A stretch of DNA of 64,000 nucleotides. Origin: Clostridium sp. Marseille-Q2269 (GTDB taxonomy: Bacteria; Bacillota; Clostridia; Clostridiales; Clostridiaceae). Below are positions 19,353 to 37,243 of the stretch, one piece after another; position 1 is the stretch's first letter; each line of letters begins with the position of its first letter. Where the stretch lies: NCBI RefSeq assembly GCF_943736985.1, contig NZ_CALSFS010000002.1, positions 124,001 through 188,000 of the forward strand. Reading direction: 5' to 3'. The notes below the pieces were generated by a model. It made no database searches. It had not been told where the DNA came from and was given only the letters and a program-made list of their open reading frames with translations. The position numbers and the translations under genes were made by a program.

Positions 19353-20426
19353 TTAAAGAACGTTCTTTTGAACATTAACAACAAAGTCTTGAACATTGGT
19401 AACTATAGTTTTAACACCTACATGTTCTCTAGCTGCTGCTACTTGGTTAACTGCATATTCAGCAATATCTATAGAGTAAACGTATACTGGTCTCACCTTA
19501 CCATCTACAACTTTATAAGATGAAGCTAAATTTGCAGTAGCTACTGAGTGAAGAACTGTAGCAAGACAAATTATAACCGTTGCTTTTTCAGCTTGTTCTT
19601 TCATAGCATCAAGTCCAGAGGTTACATTGTGATAAACTGGAGGAAGTGGACCATCATCTCTTATTGATCCTGCAAGAACTATTGGGATGTTATGTTCTAC
19701 ACAAGCTTTTATAAATCCATTTTTAACATTACCTTCAGAAAGTAAAGCTTCTATAGATCCAGCTCTTCTAGCTTCATTTATAAGGTCTAAGTGATTATAA
19801 TGTCCCATAGGAACTGATTCTTGAGTATATATGTTTTGTCCTAATGCAGTACCTAAAAGTCCTCCTTCTAAGTCGTGAGTAGCCATGGCATTACCAGCCA
19901 TAAGAGCACTTACAAATCCTTTTTCAGCAAGGTCTGATAAAGCAACTCTAGTATCATGGTCAAATACAACAGCAGGTCCTAACACCCAAACTATATGTCC
20001 GTTATTTTCTTTTTCATATTTTAACAATTCATATAATTCTTTGTAGTCTCTTGAAAAGGATGATTCAACAGATCTTCCAAATCCTACTCTTGGTATATTG
20101 TTAAAGCCTTGGGCATATCTATAGATCCCTTCGCTGCCATCTATAGCATGTCCTAAAATAACTTTATCTCCAACTTTAAGACTTCTAAATTCCACAACTT
20201 CCATAGTGCTATCATCTTTAACTACTGCAGCACAATCTAAAGAAGTTTGGTTTGGTAAAACCCATTCACCTTTAACTTTAAAATATTCTGGTAATACAGA
20301 AGTCATATGAAATCCTGCCGGAGCTACTCCATCTTTTTCAACTTCACCTATTTTAACATCTGGTGCTTTAACAAGAAAATCTTGTTTAAAATCTGGTGGT
20401 GTAAATTTTGGTAATTGAAAACTCAT
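19353..20426 (-). CDS. Ornithine cyclodeaminase, archaeal/LOR-SDH type, copy 2
   Basis: This 357-aa paralogue of the next gene begins with the same MSFxLPKFTPPDF start and keeps HIVWVLGPAVVFDHDTR and VLAGSIRDDGPLPPVYHN. GNAMATHDLEGGLLGTALGQ corresponds to GNTLATYDLEKGMYGTVLGQ in copy 1. The predicted role is cyclisation of ornithine to proline, linking arginine catabolism to D-proline reduction. A GGAGG site stands before the ATG. It is the first gene of a two-gene operon, divergent from the permease at 20948. Confidence 0.75.
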   Translation of the reverse strand: MSFQLPKFTPPDFKQDFLVKAPDVKIGEVEKDGVAPAGFHMTSVLPEYFKVKGEWVLPNQTSLDCAAVVKDDSTMEVVEFRSLKVGDKVILGHAIDGSEGIYRYAQGFNNIPRVGFGRSVESSFSRDYKELYELLKYEKENNGHIVWVLGPAVVFDHDTRVALSDLAEKGFVSALMAGNAMATHDLEGGLLGTALGQNIYTQESVPMGHYNHLDLINEARRAGSIEALLSEGNVKNGFIKACVEHNIPIVLAGSIRDDGPLPPVYHNVTSGLDAMKEQAEKATVIICLATVLHSVATANLASSYKVVDGKVRPVYVYSIDIAEYAVNQVAAAREHVGVKTIVTNVQDFVVNVQKNVL

Positions 20427-22502: not shown

Positions 22503-23384
22503 TTAAGTGATTTTTTGCTCTCTTCCCCTTAAATATGATTTAAACATAGTGACAGATGTGTATAAAATAACAATTATAACTAACCAAGTCAATATAGTTA
22601 AAGGTAATTCTTTAACTATATAAGCTGCTATTAATACACCTATAATACCAAATACAGTCACCGCCATAGAAACTTTTCTATTATAGGCACCTTCTTTTAC
22701 AAACTTAGCTGATGCGGCTGGCATTAAATATGCACAAGATCCCATCATTATTGGGAATGCAACCTTTGGACTCATACCAAGAGCAAATATTAAAGCCATG
22801 CATGGAGCATACAATCCTATTCCTAATGTCATCAATGCACCTAAAAAGAAATTAGCTATTACTGCTATTACTAATTTTATACCAGTAAGACCTATTGCAG
22901 TTCCTCCAACTGGCATTAATTTTAATTGACTAGCAAGCATTAAAAATGCAACTATCATAAGTGCAATTCCCATGCCAAGTTGAACTTTTTTCTCATCAAG
23001 CTTTGAAACTATTCCAGCTCCTACTACTGCTCCAATTGTAGCTGATATCAACATAGAAAATAAAGTAATTGGATCTACCTTTATAACAGTTATAAATATT
23101 AAAGCTTCTGTTACTACAGGAATTGTACAAGAAACATTTAATGTTCCTGGTAAAACTCTATCTTCTGTTAAGCTTGAAAATCTAAGCATAGCAGTCATTG
23201 GTGCAAAGCTTCCTATTCCTAAAGTATCAAAAAAATTGGCTATGAATCCTACTAGACCAGCCTTCCAAAAACTCACATTCTCTAGATTTCCGTTTTTAGA
23301 GTTTTTTACGAAATCCATAAAAAATATGAATGCGAAATAAAAAGTTAAAATCAATAAAATCCCAAAAACAATTTTTACTATCAT
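22503..23384 (-). CDS. TSUP (TauE/SafE) family membrane permease, copy 2
   Basis: This 293-aa paralogue of the 8596-9474 protein has the same pair of signature loops (NFFDTLGIGSFAPMTAML near 51 and LGALMTLGIGLYAPCMALIFALGMSPKVAFPIMMGS near 190) and about eight helices. Identity with copy 1 looks like two thirds or more along the whole length, so duplication is recent relative to the family. It lies downstream of prdF behind that gene's terminator. The substrate is unknown. The GGAGG before ATG 23384 supports the start. Confidence 0.85.
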   Translation of the reverse strand: MIVKIVFGILLILTFYFAFIFFMDFVKNSKNGNLENVSFWKAGLVGFIANFFDTLGIGSFAPMTAMLRFSSLTEDRVLPGTLNVSCTIPVVTEALIFITVIKVDPITLFSMLISATIGAVVGAGIVSKLDEKKVQLGMGIALMIVAFLMLASQLKLMPVGGTAIGLTGIKLVIAVIANFFLGALMTLGIGLYAPCMALIFALGMSPKVAFPIMMGSCAYLMPAASAKFVKEGAYNRKVSMAVTVFGIIGVLIAAYIVKELPLTILTWLVIIVILYTSVTMFKSYLRGREQKIT

Positions 23385-23695: not shown

Positions 23696-24703
23696 CTATT
23701 TTAATACAAATCCATATTTAACTGGATCATCGTCATCTACTAAGTATTGAGCGAATCCAGTAACATATGCGCTACCAGTTATTTCTGGTATTATACCATC
23801 ATATTCTCCAACTTTAGTTTCTTCTAGTATCTTTCCTTTAAATTTAGTGCAAATAATACTTTCATTTACTATTTCTTCTCCAACCTTCATCTTTCCTAAA
23901 GCATGTAGTAATGCCATTTTAGCGCTTGTACCAGTTCCACAAGGTGATCTATCAACTTGACCTTGACCAAATACTACTACATTTTGTACATCTGCATCTT
24001 CACTTTTTGCAGGACCATAGAATTCACAAAGGTCAACTGTTTTTATATGTTGTAATACTGGATGTTTAATTTCAACTTGATCATTAACAGCATGAATTAT
24101 TTTCATTCCTAAATCATTTAATTTTTGAGCATTAGTTGGACAAATATCTATGCCTATTTTTTCAGCATCTACCATAGCAAAAAAGCTTCCACCAAAGGAT
24201 ATATCTAATGTAAGTTTTCCATAATCAGGAACATCAATTTCTACATCTTTTTTATATAAGAAAGCTGGAACATTAACGATTGATGTTTCTTTAGCTTTTC
24301 CATCTTCAACTTTTACTCTAGCATTGATCATTCCTGCTGGAGCTTCTAATTTTATGTTTGTATATGGTTCTTCTACCTTTACTATTCCCATTTCAACTGC
24401 ACATGTTGCTGCACCTATTGAGCCATGTCCACACATGTTAAGGTATCCGCCACCATCCATGAATATGATACCTAAATCTGCTGTTTCATCAGCTGGTTCT
24501 GTATAAATAGCACCAAACATATCATTATGTCCTCTAGGTTCTGACATAAGCATTGTTCTTAAGCTATCACTGTTTTCTTCTAGGTATTCCATTTTTTCTG
24601 CCATTGTTTTTCCTGGAATCTTTGGAATTCCTCCTGTTACTATTCTTGTTGGTTCTCCCATTGTGTGAGATTCAATAGTTTGAATTGTTTTTATAGCTCT
24701 CAT
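23696..24703 (-). CDS. prdF: Proline racemase
   Basis: Proline racemase interconverts L- and D-proline with two cysteine bases and no cofactor. Both catalytic segments are present: MCGHGSIG with Cys91 and DRSPCGTGTS with Cys255. The length of 335 aa is normal for the family. Having the CGTGT cysteine supports proline racemase over hydroxyproline epimerase-like members with Thr or Ser at the first position. It follows prdE by 13 bases, completing prdD-prdE-prdF. It supplies D-proline to PrdA/PrdB. Confidence 0.95.
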   Translation of the reverse strand: MRAIKTIQTIESHTMGEPTRIVTGGIPKIPGKTMAEKMEYLEENSDSLRTMLMSEPRGHNDMFGAIYTEPADETADLGIIFMDGGGYLNMCGHGSIGAATCAVEMGIVKVEEPYTNIKLEAPAGMINARVKVEDGKAKETSIVNVPAFLYKKDVEIDVPDYGKLTLDISFGGSFFAMVDAEKIGIDICPTNAQKLNDLGMKIIHAVNDQVEIKHPVLQHIKTVDLCEFYGPAKSEDADVQNVVVFGQGQVDRSPCGTGTSAKMALLHALGKMKVGEEIVNESIICTKFKGKILEETKVGEYDGIIPEITGSAYVTGFAQYLVDDDDPVKYGFVLK

Positions 24704-24716: not shown

Positions 24717-25187
24717 TCAATTTTGTTTTCTTTTCATTTTTAATTTTAAAAATGCTAAAGCTTTTTTAGCATCTATTGGCATAACATTGTTTTCCCCTAC
24801 AACCTCAGTTTCTATTCCTGCCTTTGATTTATTAAAATCAACTACAGTATTCATGAACTCATTTGTTACAACAAACTGAGCTTGAGTTCCTATAAAACTC
24901 ATACCAACCACTGGTATATCTCTCTTTCCTATAGCTTCTAGGGCTGAGGCAAAATCTATATTACTATTACCCCATCCATCTATGGATACTATAACTCCAT
25001 CAGCTCTCATTGCTTCTGCCCAAGCTCCTATTCTTTGGCCTATGAATACCTTTTCTTCATTTGCTTGTGGCGTGCCTGCAACTACAATTCCTAACAAATC
25101 TATATCTTTATCATTAGAGACAATTTCTACTAGAGGATCTCTAAAATGATGTAACGTTGTTTCCTTTGTAGATGGCCCTATACCCAA
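24717..25187 (-). CDS. prdE: PrdE, homologue of the alpha (C-terminal) part of PrdA
   Basis: This 156-aa protein aligns with PrdA from its cleavage site on: MGIGPSTKETTLHHFRDPLVE corresponds to CIGPASKECSRHYWREPLVM, then VAGTPQANEEKVFIGQRIG to VGSPQINSEKFYVSERLG, and NSNIDFASALEAIGKRDIP to NNHIDFASHVEQIGMRGVP. The pyruvoyl-forming Cys is replaced by the initiator Met, so PrdE cannot form that cofactor. Its function is not established; a structural partner of PrdD or a regulator is possible. It follows prdD by 11 bases. Confidence 0.9.
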   Translation of the reverse strand: MGIGPSTKETTLHHFRDPLVEIVSNDKDIDLLGIVVAGTPQANEEKVFIGQRIGAWAEAMRADGVIVSIDGWGNSNIDFASALEAIGKRDIPVVGMSFIGTQAQFVVTNEFMNTVVDFNKSKAGIETEVVGENNVMPIDAKKALAFLKLKMKRKQN

Positions 25188-25198: not shown

Positions 25199-25981
25199 TT
25201 AATTCATGGATCTTAATATGCCATCCCTATATTCATTGGGACTTACAACCACTGGCATATTGCCCATATCTATTATAGATTTACATCCTATATGACCACC
25301 AGGTTCTTTTGCAAACAATCCTGTATCATACATACAGCCTTGCCCTGCTACTTGTTTAACAATTATAACTTTCTTTTTTCCTGGTCTTATTTTATCAAAA
25401 TACTCATGTTTTTCGTCACAATATCTTCCATTAATTTTTTTTAAATAATTTCGTATTTCTTGTATTATTATATCACAAAGTCTATGAGCAGCCATAGGAC
25501 CTGGTCTATTTGTAGCTTGTCCATTTTTTAAAGTAACATCTATATGTACTATTATATCATCTTCATCAGGAGTTCCTCTCCTACCAAAAACCACCTTTTC
25601 ATCTAAAAAACCTTCTGATGATCCAAATTCAGCCACTTGAATTCCACATTGTTCTACACCGGTTAACATTACTTGTACACCTGTTAATACATGAGTTATA
25701 CCCTCTCCTAAAGTTCCTAAAACCTTAGCAGCTATTGGAGAAAAATCCATTATAGAGTTCACAAATTTGTGTCTTTCATTTGGATTTATAATATTTAAAT
25801 CTATTTTTTCTATAAGTTCTTTCCCATCCATATCTTCGTTATTAAATATGTCAGCTAATGTGTGCTTTCTTATATATAAGACTTGATTATCTATGTAAGT
25901 TCTATCTGAAAACTCCACCTTATTAATATTAAAAACCTTTATAACTAATCTTCTTAATATAACTTCTTGTTCCACCAGCAT
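25199..25981 (-). CDS. prdD: PrdD, homologue of the beta part of PrdA
   Basis: This 260-aa protein aligns with the central PrdA region just before its cleavage site: FVNSIMDFSPIAAKVLGTLG corresponds to YSETIMDVQPIATKEG, GIQVAEFGSSEGFL to GVQVGEFGSSEGIL, and RPGKKKVIIVKQVAGQGCM to RPGKKKVVVVKEIMGQGAM. It ends MGNMPVVVSPNEYRDG, where PrdA continues to its Thr-Cys site. It lacks the duplicated N-terminal domain of PrdA. Start ATG 25981 has AAAGGG six bases upstream. It is the first gene of prdDEF. Confidence 0.9.
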   Translation of the reverse strand: MLVEQEVILRRLVIKVFNINKVEFSDRTYIDNQVLYIRKHTLADIFNNEDMDGKELIEKIDLNIINPNERHKFVNSIMDFSPIAAKVLGTLGEGITHVLTGVQVMLTGVEQCGIQVAEFGSSEGFLDEKVVFGRRGTPDEDDIIVHIDVTLKNGQATNRPGPMAAHRLCDIIIQEIRNYLKKINGRYCDEKHEYFDKIRPGKKKVIIVKQVAGQGCMYDTGLFAKEPGGHIGCKSIIDMGNMPVVVSPNEYRDGILRSMN

Positions 25982-26054
25982 CACCATCCCTTTATTATTA
26001 TAATCATTTACATTGACACAGGTTTAACATTTATTCTAGAAAATTTACACATTT

Positions 26055-26302: not shown

Positions 26303-27028
26303 TTAAACTTTTGCTATATATTCATATGGTAATGGAACTATCTTTCCTGCTGAAGGAATCTTAATTAATTGTTCTAATGTATCTTTTACTATAGCTGTTT
26401 GCATTTCTATATTATTAGGTTCTCCTGCATTAGCACCCATTGGTACCCTTGGGGCAACTGCTCTTGGTGTACCAGTTTGTCTAACAACTGGTGGAAGGGC
26501 AGCTATTATTATTGTAGGAATTCCTACCTTTTCGATCGCTCTCTGCACTAAAACTGCAGATCTATGACAAGTTCCTCATCCAGCAGTCATAATTACTGCA
26601 TCTACATTTTCTTCTTTTAAAATATTAGCTATAGATGGCCCTGTTTCTTCTCTGAATTTTTGTTGGTTTCCACCACCACCCATAAATCCTACATGAGTTG
26701 GAGCAACAGATTTTATAAAGCCAGCATCTGCTAATTCTCTTAATCTATCTAGCGGAAACATAGCATTTATATCTTTATTAACATCTGAGTTATCATATCC
26801 CCCGTGAGATACCATCATATCTGATGTTTTGGCATCTCCTGGTATTAATCTATATGTGAAATCTCCTGCTAAATTAAATCTCTTATCTTTTTTTAAATGA
26901 ACTCCTGATGCAGTAGCTATGGCTACCGTCATATCTTTTAGTTCCTTTGTAACCGGTGCCCATACTGGTTCTGGAGTTATAGGAACGAATATTTCTGATT
27001 GTAAACCTTTTGTAATAGTTAAACTCAT
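26303..27028 (-). CDS. prdB: D-proline reductase selenoprotein subunit PrdB, copy 2 (in-frame UGA = Sec151)
   Basis: The second gamma subunit is 241 aa when the TGA at 26576-26578 is read as Sec: VIMTAG-Sec-GTCHRSAV. The body is nearly identical to copy 1 apart from conservative changes such as GPSIANILKEENVDAVI for GPEVAKILKEEGVDAVL. The last 80 residues differ at only a handful of positions, and the DNA there has long identical runs, which suggests recent exchange with copy 1. The start is ATG 27028, preceded by GGAAGG. It is the last gene of operon B, 75 bases after the small gene. Confidence 0.95.
26542..26560 (-). promoter_or_regulatory. Candidate SECIS hairpin in prdB2
   Basis: TCTGCA and TGCAGA pair around the loop GTTTTAG, 15 bases after the UGA. 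The stem is identical to that in prdB1, and the only difference in the loop is T for A. Confidence 0.65.
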
Positions 27029-27103: not shown

Positions 27104-27379
27104 TTATTTCCATCTATCCTTAGGTTTTATCCCTCGTCTTTGTTGTATTTCTAAGTTACTTACATACTTTTCATTTATTTTATCAGATAACACTTCTACA
27201 AAACTCATATTTAACCCTATTTCTTGACCTACTTTAAGTTCGTAATCTGATATTATCATTCTTCTTGGTATTCTTAAATAACCAAGCCTTCCTTTAAAAT
27301 CTATAGCTACCGCTCCATCGGATACTTCTACGATAACACCTTCCATTTGTATAATTTTATCACCGTATTTTAAATCCAT
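27104..27379 (-). CDS. Small conserved protein between prdA and prdB (CBO2463/CBO2479 type), copy 2
   Basis: A 91-aa paralogue of the 10553-10828 product. Differences cluster in the first 30 and last 10 residues; the segment DYELKVGQEIGLNMSFVEVLSDK is unchanged. It follows prdA2 by 8 bases, the same spacing as in operon A. Strict conservation of position in both operons suggests a needed partner or assembly factor. No known catalytic or metal site is visible. Confidence 0.85.
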   Translation of the reverse strand: MDLKYGDKIIQMEGVIVEVSDGAVAIDFKGRLGYLRIPRRMIISDYELKVGQEIGLNMSFVEVLSDKINEKYVSNLEIQQRRGIKPKDRWK

Positions 27380-27387: not shown

Positions 27388-29505
27388 CTACTTTGTGCTA
27401 TATTTCTCTTTTCTTTTTTCACTCATTGGTATTGAAGTTTCATTTAAAGCTCTTTCTATCTTTATATCTTCAGCTTTTTCTATTAATTCTAAATTATTTT
27501 CTTTAACATTTGCATTCCAAGCTCTTTCTGGTTTTTTAACATCTTCTCCAGCCATAGCTGCTTTAAGCATTTCAACACCTCTTATAGCATCTTCTGGGCA
27601 TAATGTATTACATTCTAATACTTCGTTTTCTATTCCACCTTCTGATTTGTTGTTGTCTATCATATATTTCATATATTTATTACCAACAACTAGAGCACCT
27701 TGAACTGCACAGAATGAAAATGCTACACATGGTATTTCTCTCATACCTATTTGTTCTACATGGCTTGCAAAGTCAATATGATTATTTCCAAAACCTTCAG
27801 TTGTAACAAATGCACCATCAACATCTAAGGCTTCTACCATCATTCCCATTCTTTCTGATACATAGAATTTCTCACTGTTGATTTGTGGACTTCCTACAAA
27901 TATAACTCCACATAAATCTAATTCTTTATCTTTCATACATTCCATTACAAGAGGTTCTCTCCAATAATGTCTTGAACATTCTTTAGAAGCAGGTCCAATA
28001 CAAGTTAAGGCATGAATACCACCATCTAACACTTCAAGTGGTGAAAGCATTACTGGAACATTTCCTAAATCAACATTTGGTTTACCGCCCAAATATCCTA
28101 CTGGTTCCACTGGCAATATTAAGTTGTCATGCATAGCACCTTGACCCATTATTTCCTTAACAACTACAACTTTTTTCTTTCCTGCTCTTCTTACTTGTTC
28201 AAAAATTTCATTATTAACTACCAAAGACTCATCTTCTAACTTTTTCATAGCCTCTCTTATTTCTTGAGTTATAAAGTCAGTTGCTCTATGAGCAGCCATA
28301 GGGCCTGGTCTTTCCATATTAGTCTTTTCTTTTATAGTTACCTGTGTTTTTATGAATATTTCACCTTTATCTGGTGATCCTGGTCTATTAAACATTATGT
28401 TTTCTTCTAGTATACCTTCTGAAGATCCAAATTCACCTATTTGAACTCCATTTTCATCTGTTCCTGTTACCATTATGATAACTCCATCTAATACTCTAGT
28501 TACACCTGTTCCTAATTTACTTTCTCCTTCTTTAGTAGCTATTGGTTGTACATCCATTATAGTTTCACTATAAGTATTATACTTATCTGGAGTTATTATA
28601 TCTATTTTTACTTCCTTTACTAATGGGCTAACCTTTTTAGCATCTTCGCATACTCCTTCTCTTATGTAAAGAGTTGTTCCTTCTATCTTTGTTTCAGGAC
28701 CAAATTCTACTTTATCTATTTTATAATGGTTTCTAGTAAGACTTCTTATAACTTTTTCTTCTAATTTAACTTCTTTTTTGACTTCTACATCTGAAACTGC
28801 TAATACTTCACCTTTTTCAGCTTTTACTTGCGGTACTTTTACTGATTTACCTGAACCTATATTGCCATTTAAAGGTACTTCTATATCAATTCCTTTACCT
28901 TCAGCAATTCTGATTCTTAAAGTTCCGCCATTTACTGTTGCTTTTGAATCAACACTCATGTTTACTTCCTCCTTAAATCCTTCTAATATATCTGCTGTTA
29001 CAGGAGTTAAAGCTGGTGTATCTACACTTAATGTAGTCCCTACAACTTCTTGTCTTGTAAGCGCATTCTCATCTAATGAAATTAAAAGAGAATCTGTAAG
29101 TTTTTCAAAATGCATTGGATTTTCTAAATCACTGGCTTTTATAACATGACCTACTTTTAAGTTGTATTTTAAAACTGCCTTTTCATTTCCTTCTGTTAAT
29201 TCTTCTTCAGCAGTAGTAGTAGTATCTTCTTTTGAATCTTCTTTCTTTATAGTCTTAACCCCTTCTACTATATCTGAAGTTAATGGTGTTAATGAATCTA
29301 TAGTTTTTAATAATTTTGCTCCTATTACTTCTCCAACTTTTAAGCAATCAGCTGGAATAGTTAATAATCCTGAGTCTACCATGTCTGGAAATATTTCTGG
29401 ATCTTCTAAATTATCTGCAGATAATATTGTTCCTTCTTCTGTTCTACAACATACTACAGCATGTTCATCTTTTAATTCCTCTGCATGTTCAGCTGTCATT
29501 GACAT
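27388..29505 (-). CDS. prdA: D-proline reductase proprotein PrdA, copy 2
   Basis: This 705-aa proprotein has the same plan as copy 1: two N-terminal repeat units (from about residues 22 and 114), an acidic linker with four threonines in a row, the RIRIAEGKGIDIEVPL strand, the beta part, and the HALT-CIGPASKE cleavage site with Cys near 502. Roughly 85-90 percent of positions look identical to copy 1, with divergence concentrated in the linker and around residues 270-300. AGGAGG lies eight bases before ATG 29505. It follows prdC2 by 30 bases. Confidence 0.95.
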   Translation of the reverse strand: MSMTAEHAEELKDEHAVVCCRTEEGTILSADNLEDPEIFPDMVDSGLLTIPADCLKVGEVIGAKLLKTIDSLTPLTSDIVEGVKTIKKEDSKEDTTTTAEEELTEGNEKAVLKYNLKVGHVIKASDLENPMHFEKLTDSLLISLDENALTRQEVVGTTLSVDTPALTPVTADILEGFKEEVNMSVDSKATVNGGTLRIRIAEGKGIDIEVPLNGNIGSGKSVKVPQVKAEKGEVLAVSDVEVKKEVKLEEKVIRSLTRNHYKIDKVEFGPETKIEGTTLYIREGVCEDAKKVSPLVKEVKIDIITPDKYNTYSETIMDVQPIATKEGESKLGTGVTRVLDGVIIMVTGTDENGVQIGEFGSSEGILEENIMFNRPGSPDKGEIFIKTQVTIKEKTNMERPGPMAAHRATDFITQEIREAMKKLEDESLVVNNEIFEQVRRAGKKKVVVVKEIMGQGAMHDNLILPVEPVGYLGGKPNVDLGNVPVMLSPLEVLDGGIHALTCIGPASKECSRHYWREPLVMECMKDKELDLCGVIFVGSPQINSEKFYVSERMGMMVEALDVDGAFVTTEGFGNNHIDFASHVEQIGMREIPCVAFSFCAVQGALVVGNKYMKYMIDNNKSEGGIENEVLECNTLCPEDAIRGVEMLKAAMAGEDVKKPERAWNANVKENNLELIEKAEDIKIERALNETSIPMSEKRKEKYSTK

Positions 29506-29535
29506 CTGCCATTACCTCCTAACTTTTTATTATTT

Positions 29536-30846
29536 TTACTTCTGTGGCAATCTTCTTGTTAATGTATAATCAATAGTTCTAAATATATGATCTGTATGAT
29601 GATATACTGGAACTTTAGCTTTTGGAGCTATCTGCATAACTGTATTTGAACAATCATTACAGTTTGATATTAATATTCTTTCTGCTCCATCTTTTTTTAA
29701 CTGCATAACTGCAGCCGCTTGGCCTGGTCATTCACCAGGTGTCTTACATTTTCCTGGTCCATTTCCTTTACCCTTTGGATATTCTATATTCTTACAATCA
29801 ACTACTCCTGCAATTTTTGCATTCATTTTAGTTGCCACGTCTCTTAATCTCTCTTCATTAGCTCCACAGGCACACACTAGTAACCCTAATGGACCTTTAT
29901 ATTCTGGTAGTGGTATTGTAACTATTGCTCCACCAGATATTTTAGTAACAGTATCTTTTTCTATATCTCCAGATTTTCCAGTATATGGTCCACCCATTAC
30001 CAATTCACCATATTCACCATCTATTCCACCAGCTTTTTCAATTAAATCTTTAACTGGAGTTCCAACTGGTACTTGTAAAAATACATTTGGCTTATTACCT
30101 GTGTTTAATTTTCCTATTACAGTTATATCTTTATCTATAACTGGTTTTCCTTGTTCAACAGCTCTTGTAATATTTGCTAGTGTTTCAGCATTCATTACAA
30201 TGCATTTTGCTGTTATAGGAAGATCAGTTACATCTAACCACTTATCAAATATTGCATTGATTATTGCTCTTTCTTCACCCATTGGATATAAATCTTTAAG
30301 TAATTTTACTTCTATATCACTTGAATTTTTCAAAGATTCTTCTAATACTCTTATTGCTTTTTCATGCTTTGATTTTATAGCTATATATCCTTTTTTTGAA
30401 TTAGTAGCTTTCATAGCATAATTAATACCATTTATTATTAGCTCTGGTGTTTCCTCTATAACCTTCATATTGTGATGAAGTGCCGGTTCGCATTCTACAC
30501 AATTCGCTATAATGTAACCATCTTTATTATGTGCTTTTAGTTTTATGTGAGTAGGAAACCCTGCTCCACCCGCTCCAACTATTCCTGCTTCAAATACAGT
30601 ATCTGCTAAGTTATCACATTTTTTTATTTTAACGAATTCCGTTGTTTGAGTTTCATCTGCTTTTATTATTATTTCTTTATCTGTAGCTTTTTCCACAACA
30701 CCAGATACACTAGTATGTATTTTAGCACCAAGACCATTGGGTTCTGCTATACATTCACCTCTTTTCACTCTTTGTCCTTCTTTAACAGAAGGCATATCTG
30801 GTGCACCTACGTGCATTTTAAGGGAGAATTTGTATGACTTCTCCAT
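29536..30846 (-). CDS. prdC: Proline reductase electron-transfer protein PrdC, copy 2 (in-frame UGA = Sec373)
   Basis: It has the same architecture as copy 1: GAGGAGFPT at residues 91-99 and CKTPGE-Sec-PGQA with the TGA at 29728-29730. The frame runs on to TAA at 29536-29538, giving 436 aa ending LPQK. Copy-specific divergence lies at residues about 150-185 (HEKAIRVLEESLKNSSDIEVK against HPEAIASLEKALNGVSDIEVK), while 30534-30685 matches copy 1 with a single mismatch. It is the first gene of operon B; a sigma-54 promoter lies about 37 bases upstream. Confidence 0.94.
29701..29714 (-). promoter_or_regulatory. Candidate SECIS hairpin in prdC2
   Basis: CTGCA-GTTA-TGCAG in the mRNA, 13 bases after the UGA, identical in stem, loop and distance to prdC1. 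Confidence 0.6.
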
Positions 30847-30882
30847 AAACCCACCTCCAAATCACTGTCATCTATATTAAAA

Positions 30883-30898
30883 GCATAATTTATGCCAA
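30883..30898 (-). promoter_or_regulatory. Sigma-54 (-24/-12) promoter of prd operon B
   Basis: TTGGCAT-AAATT-ATGCT on the minus strand keeps the GG/GC pair at ten-base spacing, about 37 bases before the prdC2 start. It is slightly weaker than the operon A element (T for C and A for T next to the core dinucleotides). Confidence 0.75.
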
Positions 30899-30994
30899 CT
30901 TTGATAAAAAACTTAATAAGTTCTATAACGCTAGTTTATAGCTGTATTACATATGTATAAATAAAACTTATAGCAACACACATATATATGTTTA

Positions 30995-31118
30995 TGTCAT
31001 TTTATTGACACTTTTAATTTTTACTTTAAATTATTAAATGTAATCTATTGATTTAAGTAGAAAATATTGTCTTTTTGCCTGTGTTATTTTTTTGACATTC
31101 CTGTATGAAAATTTGACA
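30995..31118 (-). promoter_or_regulatory. Candidate activator-binding region (UAS) of operon B
   Basis: Palindrome TGTCA-TTTTAT-TGACA at 30995-31010, plus TTGACA sites at 31092-31097 and 31113-31118. Operon A has the same palindrome, also with a 6-base spacer, and also three TTGACA sites. The palindrome here is about 100 bases upstream of the -24 element. Confidence 0.6.
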
Positions 31119-31380
31119 TTTTTAATTTAATACATATATTTTTTTATTTTATTCTCTTTTTTATAAAACAATTAGGTAATATTAATTTTATTACTATTTT
31201 CTTCAAGCTCATAAATTTAGAATTATATTCATCAATAGCATTAAAAAATTGAATTTTTCTATAAAATCTTACTCTAATTATGTTAAAAACAATGTAAAAT
31301 TTTAATTTTAATATGCAAAAATTAAATTCTTTCAATATTTCTTTAATATGTGTCTATAGAATTTGTTTTACATATAAAAA

Positions 31381-31428
31381 TAAGTAGAAGAAGTTATGGT
31401 ATTTTTATACCACAACTTCTTCTACTTA
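31381..31428 (-). terminator. Terminator of the third (cysteine-type) module
   Basis: TAAGTAGAAGAAGTT pairs perfectly with AACTTCTTCTACTTA, with an inner TGGTAT/ATACCA extension. It lies 20 bases past the decayed PrdA-like fragment and fences the module off from operon B. Confidence 0.85.
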
Positions 31429-31448
31429 ATATATTTTTATTTAGTTAG

Positions 31449-31776
31449 TTATATTTGCGTAATAGGTATTTCCATATTAATTCTCTTACCTGATTGTATC
31501 TTTAATTTTATAAAGCTATTTTACCATATAACGGTATATAAGAATTTAAATGTATTTCTTTATAATGTTTAAATCAGATTCTTTAGATCCTTCTAACATA
31601 GAGGCTTGTATAGCCGTTATAGCAGGAATATCTTTATTTAATTTCTGTCCCACTACTTCCTCTCTGTTTAAAACCTTTTCACTTAAATTTATTAATAGAG
31701 GAAGTTTCTCAAAATGCATTAGATTTTCTAAATCTTCTACATTTATAATATCTCCAGCTTTTAAATTATTTTTTAT
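31449..31776 (-). pseudogene. Decayed fragment of a PrdA N-terminal domain
   Basis: Directly after the stop codon of the cysteine-type prdC, in another frame, the minus strand encodes NLKAGDIINVEDLENLMHFE, then NREEVVGQKLNKDIPAIT and ASMLEGSKES. These match the second repeat of PrdA (NLKVGHVIKASDLENPMHFE and on). The frame stops after KKYI, and a shifted frame then gives KLKIQSGKRINMEIPI, matching the PrdA strand RIRIAEGKGIDIEVPL. No start codon or ribosome-binding site is present, and the frame is broken at least once. It is the missing second half of the orphan domain at 33235-33666. Confidence 0.8.
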
Positions 31777-33070
31777 CTATAGGAAGTCTTCTTGTCAATG
31801 TATGATCTATAGTTCTAAATACATGATCTGTATGATGATATACTGGAATTCCTAGATTTGGAGCACAGCACATAACTGTATTAGAACAATCACTACAATT
31901 TGATATTAATATTCTTTCAGCTCCATCTTTCTTTAATTTCATTATTCCAGCAACTTGTCCCGGACAATCTCCTGGAGTTTTACATTTATTAGCTCCTCTT
32001 ATTTCTTCTACATTCTTACATTTAGTTACTCCAACCACTTCTGCTTTCATTTTAGAAGCTACATCTCTTAATCTTTCCTCATCTGCCCCACAAGCACATA
32101 CTAACAATCCTAATGGGCCTTTATACTCAGGTAATGGTATTGTGACTATTGCTCCACCTGATATTTTGCTTACTACAGATTCTTTTATATCTCCTGCTTT
32201 TCCTGTATATGGACCTCCTATTACTACTTCTCCAAATTCTCCATCTATTCCACCGCATTTTTCTACTAAATCATGTATTGGTGTTCCCACTGATACATCT
32301 AACAATGCATTAGGTTTATTACCAGTTGTTAATTTTCCTATTATAGTTATATCTTTATCTATAACAGGTTTTCTATCTTCCACAGCTCTTGTTATATTGG
32401 ATAGTGTTTCTCCATTAATTACAACACATTTTGCTTCTAATGGAAGTTCTGTTGGCTTTAACCATTTTCCTAATATAGCATGAATTATAGCTCTTTCTTC
32501 TCCCATTGGATATATATCTTGAAGCTCTTTTATTTCTATATCAGAAGCTCCTTTTAAGTTATCCTTTAAAATTTTTATAGCATTTTCATGCTTACTTTTT
32601 ATAGCTATATATCCCTTTGGAGCATTAGTTGCCTTCATAGCATATCTTAAACCTTTAATTACTGTATCTGGTTCTTTTTCTATGAATGCTATATTGTGAT
32701 GTAGGGCTGGTTCACATTCTACACAATTTGCTATAACATATCCATCTGGTATGTCTGCTTTTAATTTTATATGAGTTGGGAATCCAGCTCCACCAGCTCC
32801 AACTATTCCTGCTTCGTAAATAGTTTCTAAAATGCTGTCACATTCTTTAATTTTAACAAAATCTTTGGACTCATTTCCATCTGTTTTTATTATTATTTCT
32901 GCATCTGTAATTTTCTCAACTATTCCAGATACACTTGTATGTATTTTAGCTCCTAATCCATTAGGCTTAGCTATACATTCTCCCCTTTTAACTTGTTGTC
33001 CTTCTTTAACACATGCTACGTCTGGTGCTCCTACATGCATTTTTAAAGGAAACTTATACATTTTTTCCAT
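31766..33070 (-). CDS. PrdC-like electron-transfer protein, cysteine type, copy 1
   Basis: A 434-aa PrdC homologue with the full domain set: N-terminal barrel-sandwich (CVKEGQQVKRGECIAKPNGLG), GAGGAGFPTHIK near residue 91, an SLBB-like region, and C-terminal CSDCSNTVMCCAPN. At the Sec position it has Cys369 (CKTPGD-Cys-PGQ; codon 31964-31966, TGT). The CTGCA/TGCAG hairpin of the Sec genes is absent. It shares roughly 70 percent of residues with PrdC1. It follows a terminator, so it probably has its own promoter, and is followed by a decayed PrdA-like fragment. Whether it serves proline reductase under selenium limitation or another reductase is unknown. Confidence 0.88.
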   Translation of the reverse strand: MEKMYKFPLKMHVGAPDVACVKEGQQVKRGECIAKPNGLGAKIHTSVSGIVEKITDAEIIIKTDGNESKDFVKIKECDSILETIYEAGIVGAGGAGFPTHIKLKADIPDGYVIANCVECEPALHHNIAFIEKEPDTVIKGLRYAMKATNAPKGYIAIKSKHENAIKILKDNLKGASDIEIKELQDIYPMGEERAIIHAILGKWLKPTELPLEAKCVVINGETLSNITRAVEDRKPVIDKDITIIGKLTTGNKPNALLDVSVGTPIHDLVEKCGGIDGEFGEVVIGGPYTGKAGDIKESVVSKISGGAIVTIPLPEYKGPLGLLVCACGADEERLRDVASKMKAEVVGVTKCKNVEEIRGANKCKTPGDCPGQVAGIMKLKKDGAERILISNCSDCSNTVMCCAPNLGIPVYHHTDHVFRTIDHTLTRRLPIDKK

Positions 33071-33161
33071 GCCATTACCCCCTGTATTTTTTCTTTACAA
33101 TACTTATTATAAAAACAAAGTGATAGTTTTACTACTAAAAACTATATGTATAAAATTATTC

Positions 33162-33184
33162 TATAGCAATCCTATATTGCTATA
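33162..33184. repeat. Inverted repeat upstream of the cysteine-type prdC
   Basis: TATAGCAAT-CCTAT-ATTGCTATA: perfect 9-bp arms and a 5-base spacer, about 95 bases before the gene start and 16 bases from the preceding terminator. It could be an operator or a leader hairpin. Confidence 0.4.
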
Positions 33185-33199
33185 AATGACAGTTATAAA

Positions 33200-33226
33200 A
33201 AACAAAGGCAAATATTGCCTTTGTTT
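33200..33226 (-). terminator. Terminator after the orphan PrdA N-terminal domain gene
   Basis: AAACAAAGGCA pairs perfectly with TGCCTTTGTTT around a 5-base loop, 9 bases past the stop codon. Confidence 0.85.
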
Positions 33227-33234
33227 AAAATTTA

Positions 33235-33666
33235 TTATAGAGGAAGTTCTATATCTATTCCTCTTCCTTCTTCTATTTTTATTTTAAGAATTCCACCTTC
33301 AACACAAGTTATGCACTCTCCTTGTGGGCAAGCTTCTACTTCTGCTGCTTCCACTACTTCTAGGGATTCTTCAGATTTAGGAGATTCTTCTTTCTTTTTT
33401 TCTCCACCAATTTCTTTGTATCCTTCAACTATAGCTGGAGTTAATGGTGTTAATGAATCTATAGTTTTTAGTAGTTTTCCTCCTATTACCTGACCAACTT
33501 TTAGAATATCTTCTGGCATAGTCAAAAGCCCAGAATCAACCATATCTGGGAATATATCTGGATCTTCTAAATTATCTGCAGACAATATTGTTCCTTCCTC
33601 TGTTCTACAACAAACTACTGCTGGTTCATTTTTTAACTCTTCTGCATGTTCTGCTGACATTGACAT
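33235..33666 (-). CDS. Orphan PrdA N-terminal domain protein
   Basis: A 143-aa protein starting MSMSAEHAEELKNEPAVVCC, nearly identical to the PrdA start. Residues about 22-82 are one copy of the repeat unit (EGTILSADNLEDPDIFPDMVD ... PLTPAIVEG). A charged linker rich in Glu and Lys follows, then CPQGECITCVEGG and the strand ILKIKIEEGRGIDIELPL, where it ends. The second repeat and the whole catalytic part of PrdA are absent. It has a strong AGGAGG before ATG 33666 and lies 29 bases after the upstream prdC-like gene. The cysteines CPQGECITC, not seen in PrdA, could bind metal or be redox active. Confidence 0.85.
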   Translation of the reverse strand: MSMSAEHAEELKNEPAVVCCRTEEGTILSADNLEDPDIFPDMVDSGLLTMPEDILKVGQVIGGKLLKTIDSLTPLTPAIVEGYKEIGGEKKKEESPKSEESLEVVEAAEVEACPQGECITCVEGGILKIKIEEGRGIDIELPL

Positions 33667-33695
33667 AATGTATACCTCCTAAGTTTAAAAATAAT

Positions 33696-35006
33696 TTATT
33701 TATGGAGCTTCTCTTTTGGAAGTCTCCTTGTTAACTTATAATCTACAGTCCTAAATACATGATCTGTTTGATGATAAACAGGTAATTTCATCTTTGGAGC
33801 TATACCCATAACAGTATTAGAGCAATCACTACAATTAGCTATTATTATTCTTTTTGCTCCCTTGCTTTTCAAATACATAACTGCTCCTGCTTGACCTGGA
33901 CATTTTCCTGGAGTCTTACATTTATAGTTACCCTTAACATCAACAACATTTTTACACTTAGTTATAGCTACCACATCTGATTTCATTTTATGTGCTATAT
34001 CTTTAAGTCTATCTTCATGGCCTGCACAAGCACAAACTAAAAGCCCCACAGGTCCCTTATATTCTGGCAACTCCATAGTTACCACAGCTCCACCTGAAAC
34101 TTTTGTTATTACAGACTGTTCTATATTCTCTGGCAATCCAGTATAAGGTCCTCCTATAATAATCTCTCCATAAGAGCCATCTATTCCTCCACAGATTTCT
34201 ATCATATCTTTCATAGATTTTCCTATAGGTTCTTGTAAAAAAACATGGGAACCTATACCTTTTTTTAATTTTCCCATAATAGTTATATCTTTATCTATAA
34301 CTGGTTTCCTATATTCTACTGCTCGTGTTATATTAGCTAAGGTTTCTACATTTAAAACTACGCAATTGGCTTCTATAGGAATTTGTGTAGGTTCTAACCA
34401 ATTACCAAATATAGAATGTATTAAAGCTCTTTCCTCTCCTGAGGGATATATATCTATTACTTCTTTTATTTCAATATTATCTTCATGTGTTAGATGTCTT
34501 TTTAATATTTCTATGGCTTTTTTACGCTTACCTTTTATTCCTATATAGGCTTTTTTAGCATTAGTAGCTTCCATAGCATATTTTATTCCTTTTATTATAA
34601 GCTCTGGGTTATTTTCTGCTAGATATATATTGTGATGAAGCGTTGGTTCGCACTCTGCACAATTTGCTATTATGTAGCCTTCAGGTATATCAGCTTTTAA
34701 TTTAATATGAGTTGGAAAACCAGCTCCACCTGAACCTACTATTCCAGCTTCGTATACTGTATCTACTATACTATGGCATTGTTTGATTTTAACAAAGTCT
34801 TTACTTTGATTTTCTAAAGCTTCTACAAATATTTCTTTGTCTGTTATTTTGAAAACCTTACCAGACACACTAGCATGAATTTTCGCCCCCAACCCATTAG
34901 GCTCGGCTATAACTTGCCCTCTTTCTACAAATTCCCCCTCTTTAACACAGGGCACACTAGGGACACCTATGTGCATTTTAAGATAAAACTTGTATAAATT
35001 TGACAT
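33696..35006 (-). CDS. PrdC-like electron-transfer protein, cysteine type, copy 2
   Basis: A 436-aa PrdC homologue, the most divergent of the four here: GIVGSGGAGFPTHIK has Ser for Ala in the glycine motif. The Sec site is Cys (CKTPGK-Cys-PGQ, codon 33900-33902), and only a broken trace of the SECIS-like stem (GCAGTTATG) remains. CSDCSNTVMG is retained. The start is ATG 35006, preceded by AAGGAG. It lies 172 bases downstream of the PrdR-like gene without a visible terminator between them, so co-transcription with the regulator is possible. The partner reductase is unknown. Confidence 0.86.
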   Translation of the reverse strand: MSNLYKFYLKMHIGVPSVPCVKEGEFVERGQVIAEPNGLGAKIHASVSGKVFKITDKEIFVEALENQSKDFVKIKQCHSIVDTVYEAGIVGSGGAGFPTHIKLKADIPEGYIIANCAECEPTLHHNIYLAENNPELIIKGIKYAMEATNAKKAYIGIKGKRKKAIEILKRHLTHEDNIEIKEVIDIYPSGEERALIHSIFGNWLEPTQIPIEANCVVLNVETLANITRAVEYRKPVIDKDITIMGKLKKGIGSHVFLQEPIGKSMKDMIEICGGIDGSYGEIIIGGPYTGLPENIEQSVITKVSGGAVVTMELPEYKGPVGLLVCACAGHEDRLKDIAHKMKSDVVAITKCKNVVDVKGNYKCKTPGKCPGQAGAVMYLKSKGAKRIIIANCSDCSNTVMGIAPKMKLPVYHQTDHVFRTVDYKLTRRLPKEKLHK

Positions 35007-35178
35007 TTCATCACTCCTTAGGAAATTCACATTTATTATACTATCATATTTTCACTATTGTAACAATAAATAATAGAAATATGTCAATAACAATATCTTA
35101 TATGAAAAGTAATATTTATTATACTTATTATACTTTAAACTTTTTAACATTATACAAATTAATTAATTTTAAAACAAT

Positions 35179-36933
35179 TTAAATTAATCCATATTGGTTT
35201 AATTTGTAATATAAAGTACTTCTTTTTATATTAAGTATTTCTGCTGCTTTCTTTTTATTACCTTTACACATTTCCATTACTTCTTTTATAATCTTTTTTT
35301 CTGTGTTTTTAACTACTTCATTTAAATCATATCTATGGTGAGATTCCCCTTGAATTTCCTCTACATCCTGTATTATATGATTAGGTACAGACGACATTGT
35401 TACTTCTCCATTAGTAGACAAAACAACCATTCTCTCTACTACATTTTTTAATTGTCTTATATTTCCTTCCCATTTATAGGAACACAAAATATCATATACT
35501 TCTTTTTCTATAGTATTTATCTTTATGCCTTCTTTTTCTGAGATTTGATTTATAAATAAATCTATAAAATCTTTAATATCATCTCTTCTTTCTCTTAAAG
35601 GAGGTAGTTCTATATGAACTACTGCAAATCTATAAAATAAATCTTCTCTAAAAGTATTTTCCTTTATCATAGATTTTAAATTTCTATTAGTGGCCGCCAA
35701 AATTCTACAGTTAACTTTTGTACCTTTCTGACTTCCTATTCTATAAACTACACCATCTTGCAGCACTCTTAACAGTTTGGCCTGCATACTAAGGGGCATG
35801 TCTCCTATTTCATCTAGAAACAAAGTCCCATTGTTAGCAAATTCAAACTTTCCTATTTTACCTTCTTTTAGGGAGCCTGTAAAAGTTCCTCCTACATATC
35901 CAAATAGTTCACTTTCAAAAAGATTTTCAGGTATAGCACTACAATTTATGGCTACAAAATTTCCAGTTCTACCACTAGCTTTATGTATAGCCTTAGCAAA
36001 AACTTCTTTACCTGTTCCACTTTCTCCTGTAATAAGAACACTAGCAGAACTAGGGGCTACTTTTTTAGCTATAGCAATGTTATCTATTATCTTTTGACTT
36101 TTACCTATAATAGAAGAAAAACTATAATTGGAAGCTAGTTCTTTTTTATAAGCACTTTCAAAAAATTCTACCTTTTTCTTCTCCTGCATTAGTTCTTTAG
36201 ATAATGATATTACTTCTGTTATGTCTCTATCCGTAGAAGCTACTGCAATCAATTTATTTTTACTATTAAATATAGGAACAGCACTTAATATAACTGTTTT
36301 CCCTGGATAAGGTTCATTATTTACATTAGTTATTTTTCTAGGGTTCTTTAAAACCTTTAATATAGAAGCATTGGGGAAAAATGAGCCTAAATATTTTCCT
36401 ATTATCTCTTGCCTTTTTACTCCGTATAGATCTTCTGAACTTTTATTCCAATATATTACCACACCTTTGTTATTTGTTATACAAACTGCTTCATGCATAT
36501 TCTCCAAAATTCTATCTTGGAGAGTATATAATTCTTCTATATTTGTATACAACTCGTTATTCAAATTATCCAAACGAACTATTCCTATTACTTTTTTATT
36601 ATTTACTATTGGCAATCTTTCTATCTTATTTTTAACCATAGTATTTCTTGCAGAAATAATTGATTTTTCTTCAGAAATAGTTATTACTTCTTTATTTATA
36701 TAGTTTTCCAAATTGTCGTTGAAATTTTTACTATTATTTTGTAATTTATATAAATCCTTTTTAGTAAATATTCCTATAATATTGTCTTCTCCATCTACTA
36801 TCAAAACCTCATCTTTATATAGTTTAGACATCTTATTAAAAGCAGATGATATTGTTTCATGTTTAAGTACTTTTATAAAATCTGTCTCCATTACATTTTT
36901 TACGGTGTAAATTAATTCTATAGAACTATTCAT
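35179..36933 (-). CDS. prdR: Sigma-54-dependent activator with CBS and PAS domains, PrdR-like
   Basis: A 584-aa activator: a CBS pair (about residues 8-125; MxxDF...VLIVDGEDNIIGIFTKKDL and RLPIVNNKKVIGIVRLD), a PAS domain (about 145-250), an AAA+ domain with Walker A GESGTGKE and Walker B FLDEIGDM, and a C-terminal Fis-type helix-turn-helix (KKKAAEILNIKRSTLYYKL). The sigma-54 contact loop reads GTFTGS where the consensus is GAFTGA. PrdR of C. difficile activates prd genes in response to proline and has this general plan; the assignment rests on island position and the two sigma-54 promoters. Start ATG 36933 has GGAGG upstream. The adenosyl or nucleotide-type ligand of CBS domains suggests energy or cofactor sensing. 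Confidence 0.85.
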   Translation of the reverse strand: MNSSIELIYTVKNVMETDFIKVLKHETISSAFNKMSKLYKDEVLIVDGEDNIIGIFTKKDLYKLQNNSKNFNDNLENYINKEVITISEEKSIISARNTMVKNKIERLPIVNNKKVIGIVRLDNLNNELYTNIEELYTLQDRILENMHEAVCITNNKGVVIYWNKSSEDLYGVKRQEIIGKYLGSFFPNASILKVLKNPRKITNVNNEPYPGKTVILSAVPIFNSKNKLIAVASTDRDITEVISLSKELMQEKKKVEFFESAYKKELASNYSFSSIIGKSQKIIDNIAIAKKVAPSSASVLITGESGTGKEVFAKAIHKASGRTGNFVAINCSAIPENLFESELFGYVGGTFTGSLKEGKIGKFEFANNGTLFLDEIGDMPLSMQAKLLRVLQDGVVYRIGSQKGTKVNCRILAATNRNLKSMIKENTFREDLFYRFAVVHIELPPLRERRDDIKDFIDLFINQISEKEGIKINTIEKEVYDILCSYKWEGNIRQLKNVVERMVVLSTNGEVTMSSVPNHIIQDVEEIQGESHHRYDLNEVVKNTEKKIIKEVMEMCKGNKKKAAEILNIKRSTLYYKLNQYGLI

Positions 36934-37243
36934 CTTATATTCCTCCAATGTACCACGATTATAATATAGATTTCTGCATAGCAAGCTGCGTTTATGGTAT
37001 CATATAGTATATATATATTTTAACATAATTAATGTACATTTAATCATTATAAAATTATTTGATTAACGTTTACCTATAAATTGTTACTATAACTTACCCA
37101 CTTCTATATTGTAATAATTTTTTAATATATAGAAGCTGTATTGCATATAAAATACTTTACATGTAATAAGAAATAAGACCAAATTTTAATATATATTTAA
37201 ATTAAACAATATCTAAATTTTGCTTTGAAAAGGATTGATTTTA
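36934..37243. other. Divergent intergenic region prdR / tmcAL
   Basis: A 310-bp AT-rich region. On the minus strand a TATAAT lies about 25 bases before prdR, with only a poorly spaced TTGCTA as -35. Nothing else is recognisable. Confidence 0.4.

What the first reader, a model, noticed from the sequence alone, without database searches (positions are those of the whole stretch)
31449..35006. Third, selenium-free PrdC module without a reductase
Two cysteine-type PrdC proteins flank a 143-aa protein that is only the PrdA N-terminal repeat domain. No catalytic PrdA or PrdB accompanies them. The regulator gene is directly upstream. This may be a selenium-independent electron route to proline reductase, a shuttle to another acceptor, or a sink that competes for PrdA. 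I know of no description of this arrangement.
Basis: partly seen in the sequence, partly recalled or inferred. Interest (0 to 1): 0.72.

Follow-up and report, generated by a model that had tools for sequence, protein, structure and literature searches.

The report
Stand-alone PrdA N-terminal domain with PrdC
Next to its proline-reductase genes this Clostridium carries a separate small gene for just the front domain of the enzyme's PrdA subunit, a piece that relatives have split off several times and kept under selection, so it probably works as a free-standing helper in passing electrons to the enzyme and not as a selenium-free enzyme system.

Summary
The genes are there. Between prdR and the main Sec-containing prd operon lie two cysteine-type prdC genes and a 143-aa gene: one PrdA N-terminal domain plus its short tail. 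But this is not one module. Neither has the sigma-54 site found before 28 of 33 prdC genes examined. They very probably correspond to prdC4–prdA4 and prdC3–prdA3, listed in print for C. botulinum ATCC 3502 (cold-repressed). Cys-type PrdC is common and both PrdBs here are Sec, so a selenium-free route to proline is not supported.

The orphan domain is the interesting part. I found stand-alone copies in nine further genomes, eight of them directly before prdA. They fall in several places on the PrdA-domain tree, show purifying selection where tested, and all keep a vicinal Cys pair. In two related genomes PrdA itself lacks that CC domain and stands directly behind the orphan, which argues for action in trans. 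Best reading: a detached electron-relay or docking domain serving PrdC and PrdA/PrdB. New variant of a known kind.

The parts
33696..35006 (-). prdC, Cys-type, unit 1 (436 aa; CPGQ and CxxC sites all Cys); pairs in the tree with an orphan-adjacent PrdC of another genome (91/78, not starred)
   Evidence: TIGR04481 652.2 bits; no in-frame TGA; nine Cys columns are invariant in 37 aligned PrdCs, this one included; tree
33235..33666 (-). stand-alone PrdA N-terminal domain (143 aa): CC-bearing repeat 1, linker, tail GGILKIKIEEGRGIDIELPL, stop
   Evidence: TIGR04480 2-132 of 587; RBS aggagg upstream; stand-alone relatives in 9 genomes; dN/dS 0.12 against own PrdA repeat 1
33200..33226 (.). hairpin after the orphan; on the - strand it runs into a T-run, so probably an intrinsic terminator of unit 1
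   Evidence: sequence, read by eye; the scan scored it only on the + strand
31766..33070 (-). prdC, Cys-type, unit 2 (434 aa); sister of the window's own two Sec-type PrdCs
   Evidence: TIGR04481 649.6 bits; tree 98/98 starred
31549..31767 (-). remnant of PrdA repeat 2, no start codon, joined directly to the 3' end of prdC unit 2
   Evidence: tblastn to PrdA residues 112-179, 56%; frames
31452..31514 (-). remnant of the PrdA tail segment in a different frame from the repeat-2 remnant
   Evidence: likeness judged by eye
31381..31428 (-). intrinsic terminator-like hairpin ending unit 2
   Evidence: 20 pairs, 6 GC, T-run
35179..36984 (-). prdR, sigma-54-dependent activator (CBS-PAS-AAA-HTH)
   Evidence: NF041552 838 bits, cut-off 795; Pfam domains
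30882..30897 (-). sigma-54-type promoter of the main operon (TGGCATAAATTATGCT), not found before either Cys-type prdC
29536..30846 (-). prdC, Sec-type (TGA at codon 373, KTPGEUPGQ), start of the main operon
27388..29505 (-). prdA, full length, two N-terminal repeats plus catalytic part
   Evidence: TIGR04480 981 bits
27104..27379 (-). small CBO2463-type protein between prdA and prdB (from recall the position of PrdH, the PrdA maturation factor)
   Evidence: NF041553 93.8 bits; PrdH identity recalled, paper not held
26303..27028 (-). prdB, Sec-type
   Evidence: TIGR04483 434.9 bits with TGA read as U
25199..25987 (-). prdD, matches PrdA profile 163-410
   Evidence: TIGR04482 386 bits; TIGR04480
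24717..25187 (-). prdE, matches PrdA profile 415-565
   Evidence: TIGR04480 187.5 bits

Best explanation
The core of the finding is the two-gene unit prdC(Cys)-orphan. The orphan is a detached copy of the N-terminal domain of PrdA. It most likely works in trans in the proline-reductase complex, as a small thiol relay or docking subunit: NADH reduces flavin-bearing PrdC, PrdC's C-terminal Cys pair reduces the vicinal Cys pair (CC) of the N-terminal domain, and this passes electrons to the Sec/Cys pair of PrdB on PrdA. As a free protein it would let PrdC serve PrdA/PrdB that lack, or do not saturate, their own tethered domain. Shown here: the domain is a real gene with the marks of purifying selection, with CC in every copy seen, mostly placed before prdA, and the only CC domain found in that operon in two genomes whose PrdA lacks it. 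Inferred: that CC is redox-active, that PrdC is its donor and PrdB its acceptor. The second unit, prdC(Cys)-psi-prdA, is a decaying duplicate of a prdC-prdA cassette whose PrdC is still intact. Neither unit makes a selenium-free reductase.
For: Stand-alone orphans in 9 of 58 genomes that have a PrdA N-domain match (41 of 225; 21 of 391, 4 of them shared); three short frames in two genomes (G082, G155) were dropped as PrdAs cut by contig ends. Eight of nine lie directly before prdA, six of nine directly after prdC. CC is present in 66 of 68 PrdA first domains and 10 of 10 orphans. The two exceptions (L003, L005) are PrdAs that start at repeat 2, with their own RBS, behind an orphan with CC. Orphan against own PrdA repeat 1: dN/dS 0.04-0.15 at dS 0.37-1.0 in the 7 of 10 genomes compared, window 0.12; my expectation for one neutral copy is about 0.5 or more. 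All seven orphans of the window's group have tail IEEG against 1 of 27 PrdAs. Nine Cys columns are invariant in 37 PrdCs, both window Cys-types included. NADH-to-PrdC-to-PrdB transfer is proposed in PMC3091704 (passages).
Against: No structure could be predicted and no solved relative of PrdA or the orphan was found by sequence, so the place of CC is unknown; it could bind a metal or be structural. L003 and L005 are close relatives, so the CC-less PrdA may be one event, and both genomes have a second PrdA with CC elsewhere (L113, L114). In the window the orphan is not beside a prdA, and its unit lacks a sigma-54 site. 49 of 58 genomes with the domain showed no stand-alone copy (drafts included). 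No interaction evidence; the frames of 578-605 aa that were checked were single-repeat PrdAs, not fusions to PrdC.
Confidence: 0.42

Rival explanations
1. Leftover of repeated prdC-prdA cassette duplication: the orphan is a by-product of prdA 5' tandem duplication, kept by chance and without function.
For: The neighbouring unit is plainly decaying; no sigma-54 site before either unit; PMC3933689 reports prdC4-prdA4 and prdC3-prdA3 down after cold shock while the fuller prd operons go up; PrdC of unit 1 has a long branch (0.42); some orphans pair with their own PrdA on the tree.
Against: dN/dS 0.04-0.15 against own PrdA in 7 genomes; same start, tail and stop region in seven orphans of the group; RBS and hairpin intact; orphan retained where PrdA lacks the domain.
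Confidence: 0.2
2. Decoy or brake: the free N-domain binds PrdC or PrdA and limits electron flow or complex assembly when proline should be spared, with the unit uncoupled from PrdR/sigma-54 control.
For: Opposite cold response of the units in PMC3933689; no sigma-54 site in the window; much of the domain's sequence is shared with PrdA.
Against: In five relatives the orphan sits behind a sigma-54-type site in the main operon itself (L001, L002, L003, L005, L061), odd for a brake; the CC pair would not need to be kept in a pure decoy.
Confidence: 0.15
3. N-terminal third of a split PrdA paralogue: orphan + PrdD + PrdE assemble into a pyruvoyl-less PrdA-like heteromer that stabilises PrdB or matures PrdA.
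For: The three proteins tile the PrdA profile: 2-132, 163-410, 415-565. The prdD/prdE break lies where, from recall, PrdA is cut at its pyruvoyl-forming Cys. PMC3091704 notes PrdD and PrdE as middle and C-terminal parts of PrdA and suggests a stabilising role (passages).
Against: Many genomes have prdD and prdE without an orphan; orphans lie before prdA in eight of nine genomes, not beside prdD.
Confidence: 0.1
4. Selenium-independent electron route: Cys-type PrdC plus orphan replaces Sec-type PrdC when selenium is scarce.
For: Both PrdCs of the units are Cys-type while the other two of the window are Sec-type; in all ten loci with an orphan the nearest PrdC is Cys-type.
Against: PrdB is Sec in both window cassettes and in the prd cluster of all nine orphan-bearing genomes, so the reductase still needs selenium; association not significant; Cys-type PrdC is common without orphan.
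Confidence: 0.08

Closest known systems
prdC4-prdA4 and prdC3-prdA3 of C. botulinum ATCC 3502 (cbo2489-cbo2488, cbo2484-cbo2483; PMC3933689, passages read)
   Same: Two pairs of prdC with a 'partial proline reductase' beside the fuller prd operons, same order; very probably the orthologous loci (inferred from order and content, sequences not compared).
   Different: There listed only as cold-repressed genes; the passages say nothing more of what the partial proteins are. The window has no gene between orphan and prdC unit 2, whereas the locus tags leave room for three.
C. sporogenes DSM 795 prd cluster (PMC4517662, passages read)
   Same: A non-selenocysteine PrdC (CSPO_9c00170) is noted as an extra.
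   Different: Its neighbour 00160 is called a second PrdH2, with a transposase at 00150; no transposase ORF lies between these genes in the window.
PrdA N-terminal domain (TIGR04480, first 132 positions)
   Same: Sequence, CC pair, tail segment.
   Different: Stand-alone; no second repeat, no catalytic part, no pyruvoyl-forming Cys.
PrdD/PrdE (TIGR04482 and PrdA C-terminal part)
   Same: Also pieces of PrdA encoded apart in the same cluster.
   Different: Cover the catalytic part, not the N-terminal domain.
GrdA and thioredoxin in glycine reductase (from recall and PMC13188914, passages)
   Same: A small separate thiol/selenol protein relays electrons to a related reductase: the analogy for how the orphan may work.
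   Different: No sequence link was tested or is claimed; function of the orphan untested.

Membership tests
PrdC (TIGR04481) | Score above the curated cut-off of 490 | tested here: met
   652.2 and 649.6 bits
PrdC (TIGR04481) | C-terminal redox Cys/Sec sites (CPGQ or UPGQ, and CxxC or CxxU) | tested here: met
   All Cys in both; part of nine Cys columns invariant in 37 PrdCs
PrdA proprotein (TIGR04480 equivalog) | Score above 700 | tested here: not met
   Orphan 139.5 bits, positions 2-132 of 587
PrdA proprotein (TIGR04480 equivalog) | Catalytic part with pyruvoyl-forming Cys | tested here: not met
   Absent; ORF stops after the tail segment
PrdA N-terminal domain, stand-alone | CC-bearing repeat plus tail-like segment, own stop, no catalytic part | tested here: met
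   10 of 10 orphans; RBS-like sequence upstream seen in the window and nine loci
Complete D-proline reductase module | prdA and prdB in the unit | tested here: not met
   None within 31449-35006
PrdR/sigma-54 regulon | TGGCAY-N5-TTGCW site upstream of the unit | tested here: not met
   None with up to 2 mismatches before either Cys-type prdC; 28 of 33 prdC examined have one with at most 1 mismatch
Pseudogene (unit 2 PrdA remnant) | No start codon, broken frame | tested here: met
   dN/dS not decisive
SAF domain (PF08666) | Score above gathering 21 | tested here: inconclusive
   Orphan 15.3 (E 0.031); full PrdA first repeat 22.5
Selenium-independent proline reduction | Cys-type PrdB, or activity without selenium | tested here: not met
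   Both window PrdBs are Sec; activity not testable here

The most novel reading that the evidence does not exclude
PrdA's N-terminal domain is a vicinal-dithiol electron carrier that has been released several times independently from PrdA as a free protein, giving proline reductase a diffusible carrier: a counterpart of thioredoxin/GrdA in glycine reductase, and perhaps of the 'third protein factor' named in the title of an old NADH-dependent reconstitution (Schwartz and Muller 1979, seen only as a reference). In one lineage the enzyme's own copy has been lost, making the carrier obligatory.
Probability: 0.28. Interest if true: 0.72.

Novelty: new variant of a known kind. Interest (0 to 1): 0.5.

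Why it matters
How electrons pass from NADH and PrdC to the Sec of PrdB is a proposal, not a settled path (PMC3091704, passages), and I know of no assigned role for the PrdA N-terminal domain. A domain with a near-universal Cys pair, cut loose by evolution more than once and in one lineage apparently supplied only in trans, makes its role directly testable with small purified proteins. Proline reduction is a main electron sink of amino-acid-fermenting clostridia.

Tried and rejected
Linker CxxxCxxC of the window's orphan (CPQGECITC) as a conserved redox site: rejected, not conserved in the other orphans. Orphan linked to Cys-type PrdC: right direction, not significant (7 of 27 against 0 of 10; p 0.16). 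G082 and G155 as orphans: rejected, PrdAs cut by contig ends; eight orphan-next PrdCs in the raw output so become seven, and the 33-row tree still held G082's as an orphan. One origin of all orphans: AU p 0.044 (7 orphans), and eight label changes forced by starred branches on 76 rows with few columns; gene conversion with PrdA cannot be excluded as the cause, though dS 0.37-1.0 speaks against recent conversion. The L081 row of the dN/dS list was an artefact (both names hit the same gene); redone. L002, L003 and L005 were not (L003 and L005 have no own repeat 1). Selection on the PrdA remnant of unit 2: dN/dS 0.36-0.55, not decisive because intact repeat-2 pairs gave 0.24 and 0.44. PrdD-PrdE fusions suggested by the joined hits: rejected, stop codons between them in the seven looked at. 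Solved relatives of PrdA or orphan: none. RNA families: none at gathering threshold. Sigma-70-type sites in 29000-35600: not above shuffles. Plasmids: 21 records with a match, all under 60% identity; ten listed, those with a named feature being prdA; not followed. Literature searches; the listings, and the passages read, showed no functional account of the stand-alone domain. The library lacks most subscription papers, and the PrdH paper was not held; what I say of PrdH is recalled apart from one citing passage.
Full report
OBSERVATION. The window carries two prd cassettes with prdC, prdA and prdB and, between prdR and one of them, the stretch reported. On the - strand, in order: prdR 35179-36984, prdC 33696-35006, a 143-aa ORF 33235-33666, prdC 31766-33070, then after about 900 bp the main operon prdC(Sec) 29536-30846, prdA 27388-29505, a small CBO2463-type gene 27104-27379, prdB(Sec) 26303-27028, prdD 25199-25987, prdE 24717-25187, prdF (proline racemase) 23696-24703. 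The other cassette is prdC(Sec) 12989-14293, prdA 10837-12957, small gene 10553-10828, prdB(Sec) 9804-10523. The two PrdCs of the finding pass the curated PrdC cut-off and have Cys at the site where the other two have Sec. The 143-aa protein matches the PrdA profile over positions 2-132 of 587.

Directly behind the second Cys-type prdC, 31549-31767, lies a stretch that reads as PrdA repeat 2 (56% identity to residues 112-179). It has no start codon, begins at the stop of prdC, and is followed in another frame at 31452-31514 by what looks like a remnant of the PrdA tail segment. So each Cys-type prdC is followed by a piece of PrdA: an intact small gene behind the first, a broken one behind the second. 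A hairpin with a T-run stands behind the orphan (read by eye; the scan scored it on the + strand only), and a 20-pair terminator-like hairpin behind the remnant, so there are probably two transcription units. The PrdC tree agrees: the second Cys-type PrdC is sister to the window's own two Sec PrdCs (98/98, starred), whereas the first pairs with the orphan-adjacent PrdC of genome G178 (91/78, not starred). They are of different descent and not one module.

REGULATION. A sigma-54-type site with at most one mismatch (GG and GC fixed, 450 bp upstream) precedes 28 of 33 prdC genes examined; mononucleotide-shuffled upstreams give 0.2%. The five without are both Cys-type prdC of the window, L062 (G178), L072 (only about 220 bp of upstream held) and L080. 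In the window no site with up to two mismatches lies between 30898 and 38149 on either strand, while the two Sec-type prdC have one each. In five orphan-bearing relatives the site is present (L001, L002, L003, L005, L061). So prdR is next door, but the usual route of PrdR control was not found. This fits PMC3933689 (passages): in C. botulinum ATCC 3502 cbo2489-2488 (prdC4-prdA4) and cbo2484-2483 (prdC3-prdA3), with a 'partial proline reductase', went down after cold shock while the prdC2-prdA2 and prdC1-prdA1-prdB2 operons and prdDEF went up. That these are the orthologues of the two units is my inference from order and content. PMC4517662 (passages) notes a non-Sec PrdC in C. sporogenes DSM 795. 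The window's own genome is not held, and no close relative of its orphan came out of the genome collection (best segment 72%), so the species is inferred only.

THE ORPHAN DOMAIN ELSEWHERE. Profile searches gave a PrdA-N match in 41 of 225 genomes of the order (after the 206-genome family search) and 21 of 391 genomes drawn from the class, four of them shared; 58 genomes in all. Stand-alone genes are present in nine: G001, G002, G003, G005, G105, G178, G513, G388, G564. Three short frames in G082 and G155 were dropped because they are PrdAs cut by contig ends. In six the order is prdC-orphan-prdA (five of them directly behind prdR), in two prdR-orphan-prdA, and in G564 it stands apart. All ten, the window's included, stop 1 to 13 residues after the final Pro of the tail-like segment. 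In all nine genomes the prd cluster that holds or neighbours the orphan has a Sec-type prdB.

SELECTION AND ORIGIN. Orphan against its own PrdA repeat 1 gives dN/dS 0.04-0.15 at dS 0.37-1.0 in the seven genomes compared, the window at 0.12. Seven orphan pairs between genomes give 0.10-0.27. On a tree of 76 N-domains (86 columns, so many forks unresolved) orphans need eight label changes even when only starred branches count, several orphans pairing with their own PrdA. For the seven of the window's group alone, one clade is marginally rejected (AU p 0.044). So the domain was set free several times, or has been homogenised with PrdA. Against that, in the window's group all seven orphans have IEEG in the tail against 1 of 27 PrdAs (p 1.5e-6, not corrected for kinship), which would favour a common origin or a common and distinct role.

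WHY IT MAY BE A THIOL RELAY. The first domain has two adjacent cysteines (VVCCR in the window), present in 66 of 68 PrdAs, including the single-repeat PrdAs of clusters with Cys-type PrdB, and in 10 of 10 orphans; repeat 2 of the PrdAs aligned has no such pair. The two PrdAs without it, in L003 and L005, start at repeat 2 with their own RBS and stand directly behind an orphan that has the pair. This natural split is the best evidence that the domain serves PrdA in trans. Against it: the two genomes are close relatives, and both hold a second, CC-bearing PrdA in another cluster (L113, L114). PMC3091704 (passages) proposes that PrdC uses NADH to reduce a terminal thiol/selenol pair, which then reduces the Se-S bond of PrdB directly; that the CC domain sits between them is my inference.

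SELENIUM. Of 72 PrdC genes in the fetched loci and the window 54 are Cys-type (a chosen, not random, set). Seven of 27 Cys-type and 0 of 10 Sec-type PrdCs of the CPGQ group are followed by an orphan (p 0.16). Both PrdBs of the window need Sec. The selenium-free reading is therefore weak. PrdC unit 1 shares the nine Cys columns that are invariant in 37 PrdCs and has three private, mild changes at sites invariant in the other 36, so it looks functional.

VERDICT. Two units: a probably functional prdC-orphan pair and a decaying prdC-psi-prdA pair. Very probably the same genes had been listed in print. The nature, recurrence and conservation of the stand-alone PrdA N-terminal domain I did not find described in the listings. 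New variant of a known kind; interest 0.5.

Noticed in passing
L093 (10400), L096-L098, L101-L108, L111-L115, L120: Eighteen loci hold a PrdC-PrdA-PrdB set in which PrdB has Cys in place of Sec and PrdA is of the short, single-repeat size: apparently selenium-free relatives of proline reductase, some in genomes that also have the Sec system (G002, G003, G005, G126, G170). Substrate unknown.
   Followed up: no
window 25199-25987 and 24717-25187; also L062, L067, L084, L085, L117, L118: The prdD/prdE gene boundary falls where PrdA reads LTC-IGPASKE, from recall its pyruvoyl-forming cut, so PrdD and PrdE look like a genetically pre-cut, pyruvoyl-less PrdA.
   Followed up: partly
37 CPGQ-group PrdCs in the fetched loci and window: 21 of 27 Cys-type PrdCs have an extra Cys in SNTVM-C, none of 10 Sec-type do (p 2e-5, kinship not corrected): a possible compensation for the lost Sec. 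The first Cys-type PrdC of the window lacks it (VMGI).
   Followed up: partly
window 18197-19282 and 19353-20426: Two paralogous putative nickel-pincer-nucleotide-dependent ornithine cyclodeaminases (NF052526) beside the prd genes: a possible ornithine-to-proline-to-5-aminovalerate route.
   Followed up: partly
window 15050-16336: IS701-family transposase between the two prd cassettes (NF033540 169 bits).
   Followed up: no
window 8596-9474 and 22503-23384: A TauE/SafE-type permease gene (PF01925) sits behind both prd cassettes (66% identical) and behind many prd operons of relatives; perhaps a transporter for the pathway.
   Followed up: no
plasmid records, (H1-H10): prdA-like genes on plasmid records of Terrisporobacter (about 21 kb), Enterococcus raffinosus (about 1 Mb) and, by tally, Ligilactobacillus: proline reductase appears to travel on plasmids.
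   Followed up: no
L063 / L064 (G082): A genome with one two-repeat PrdA and one apparently single-repeat PrdA (both cut by contig ends), each behind a Cys-type PrdC: an intermediate architecture.
   Followed up: no
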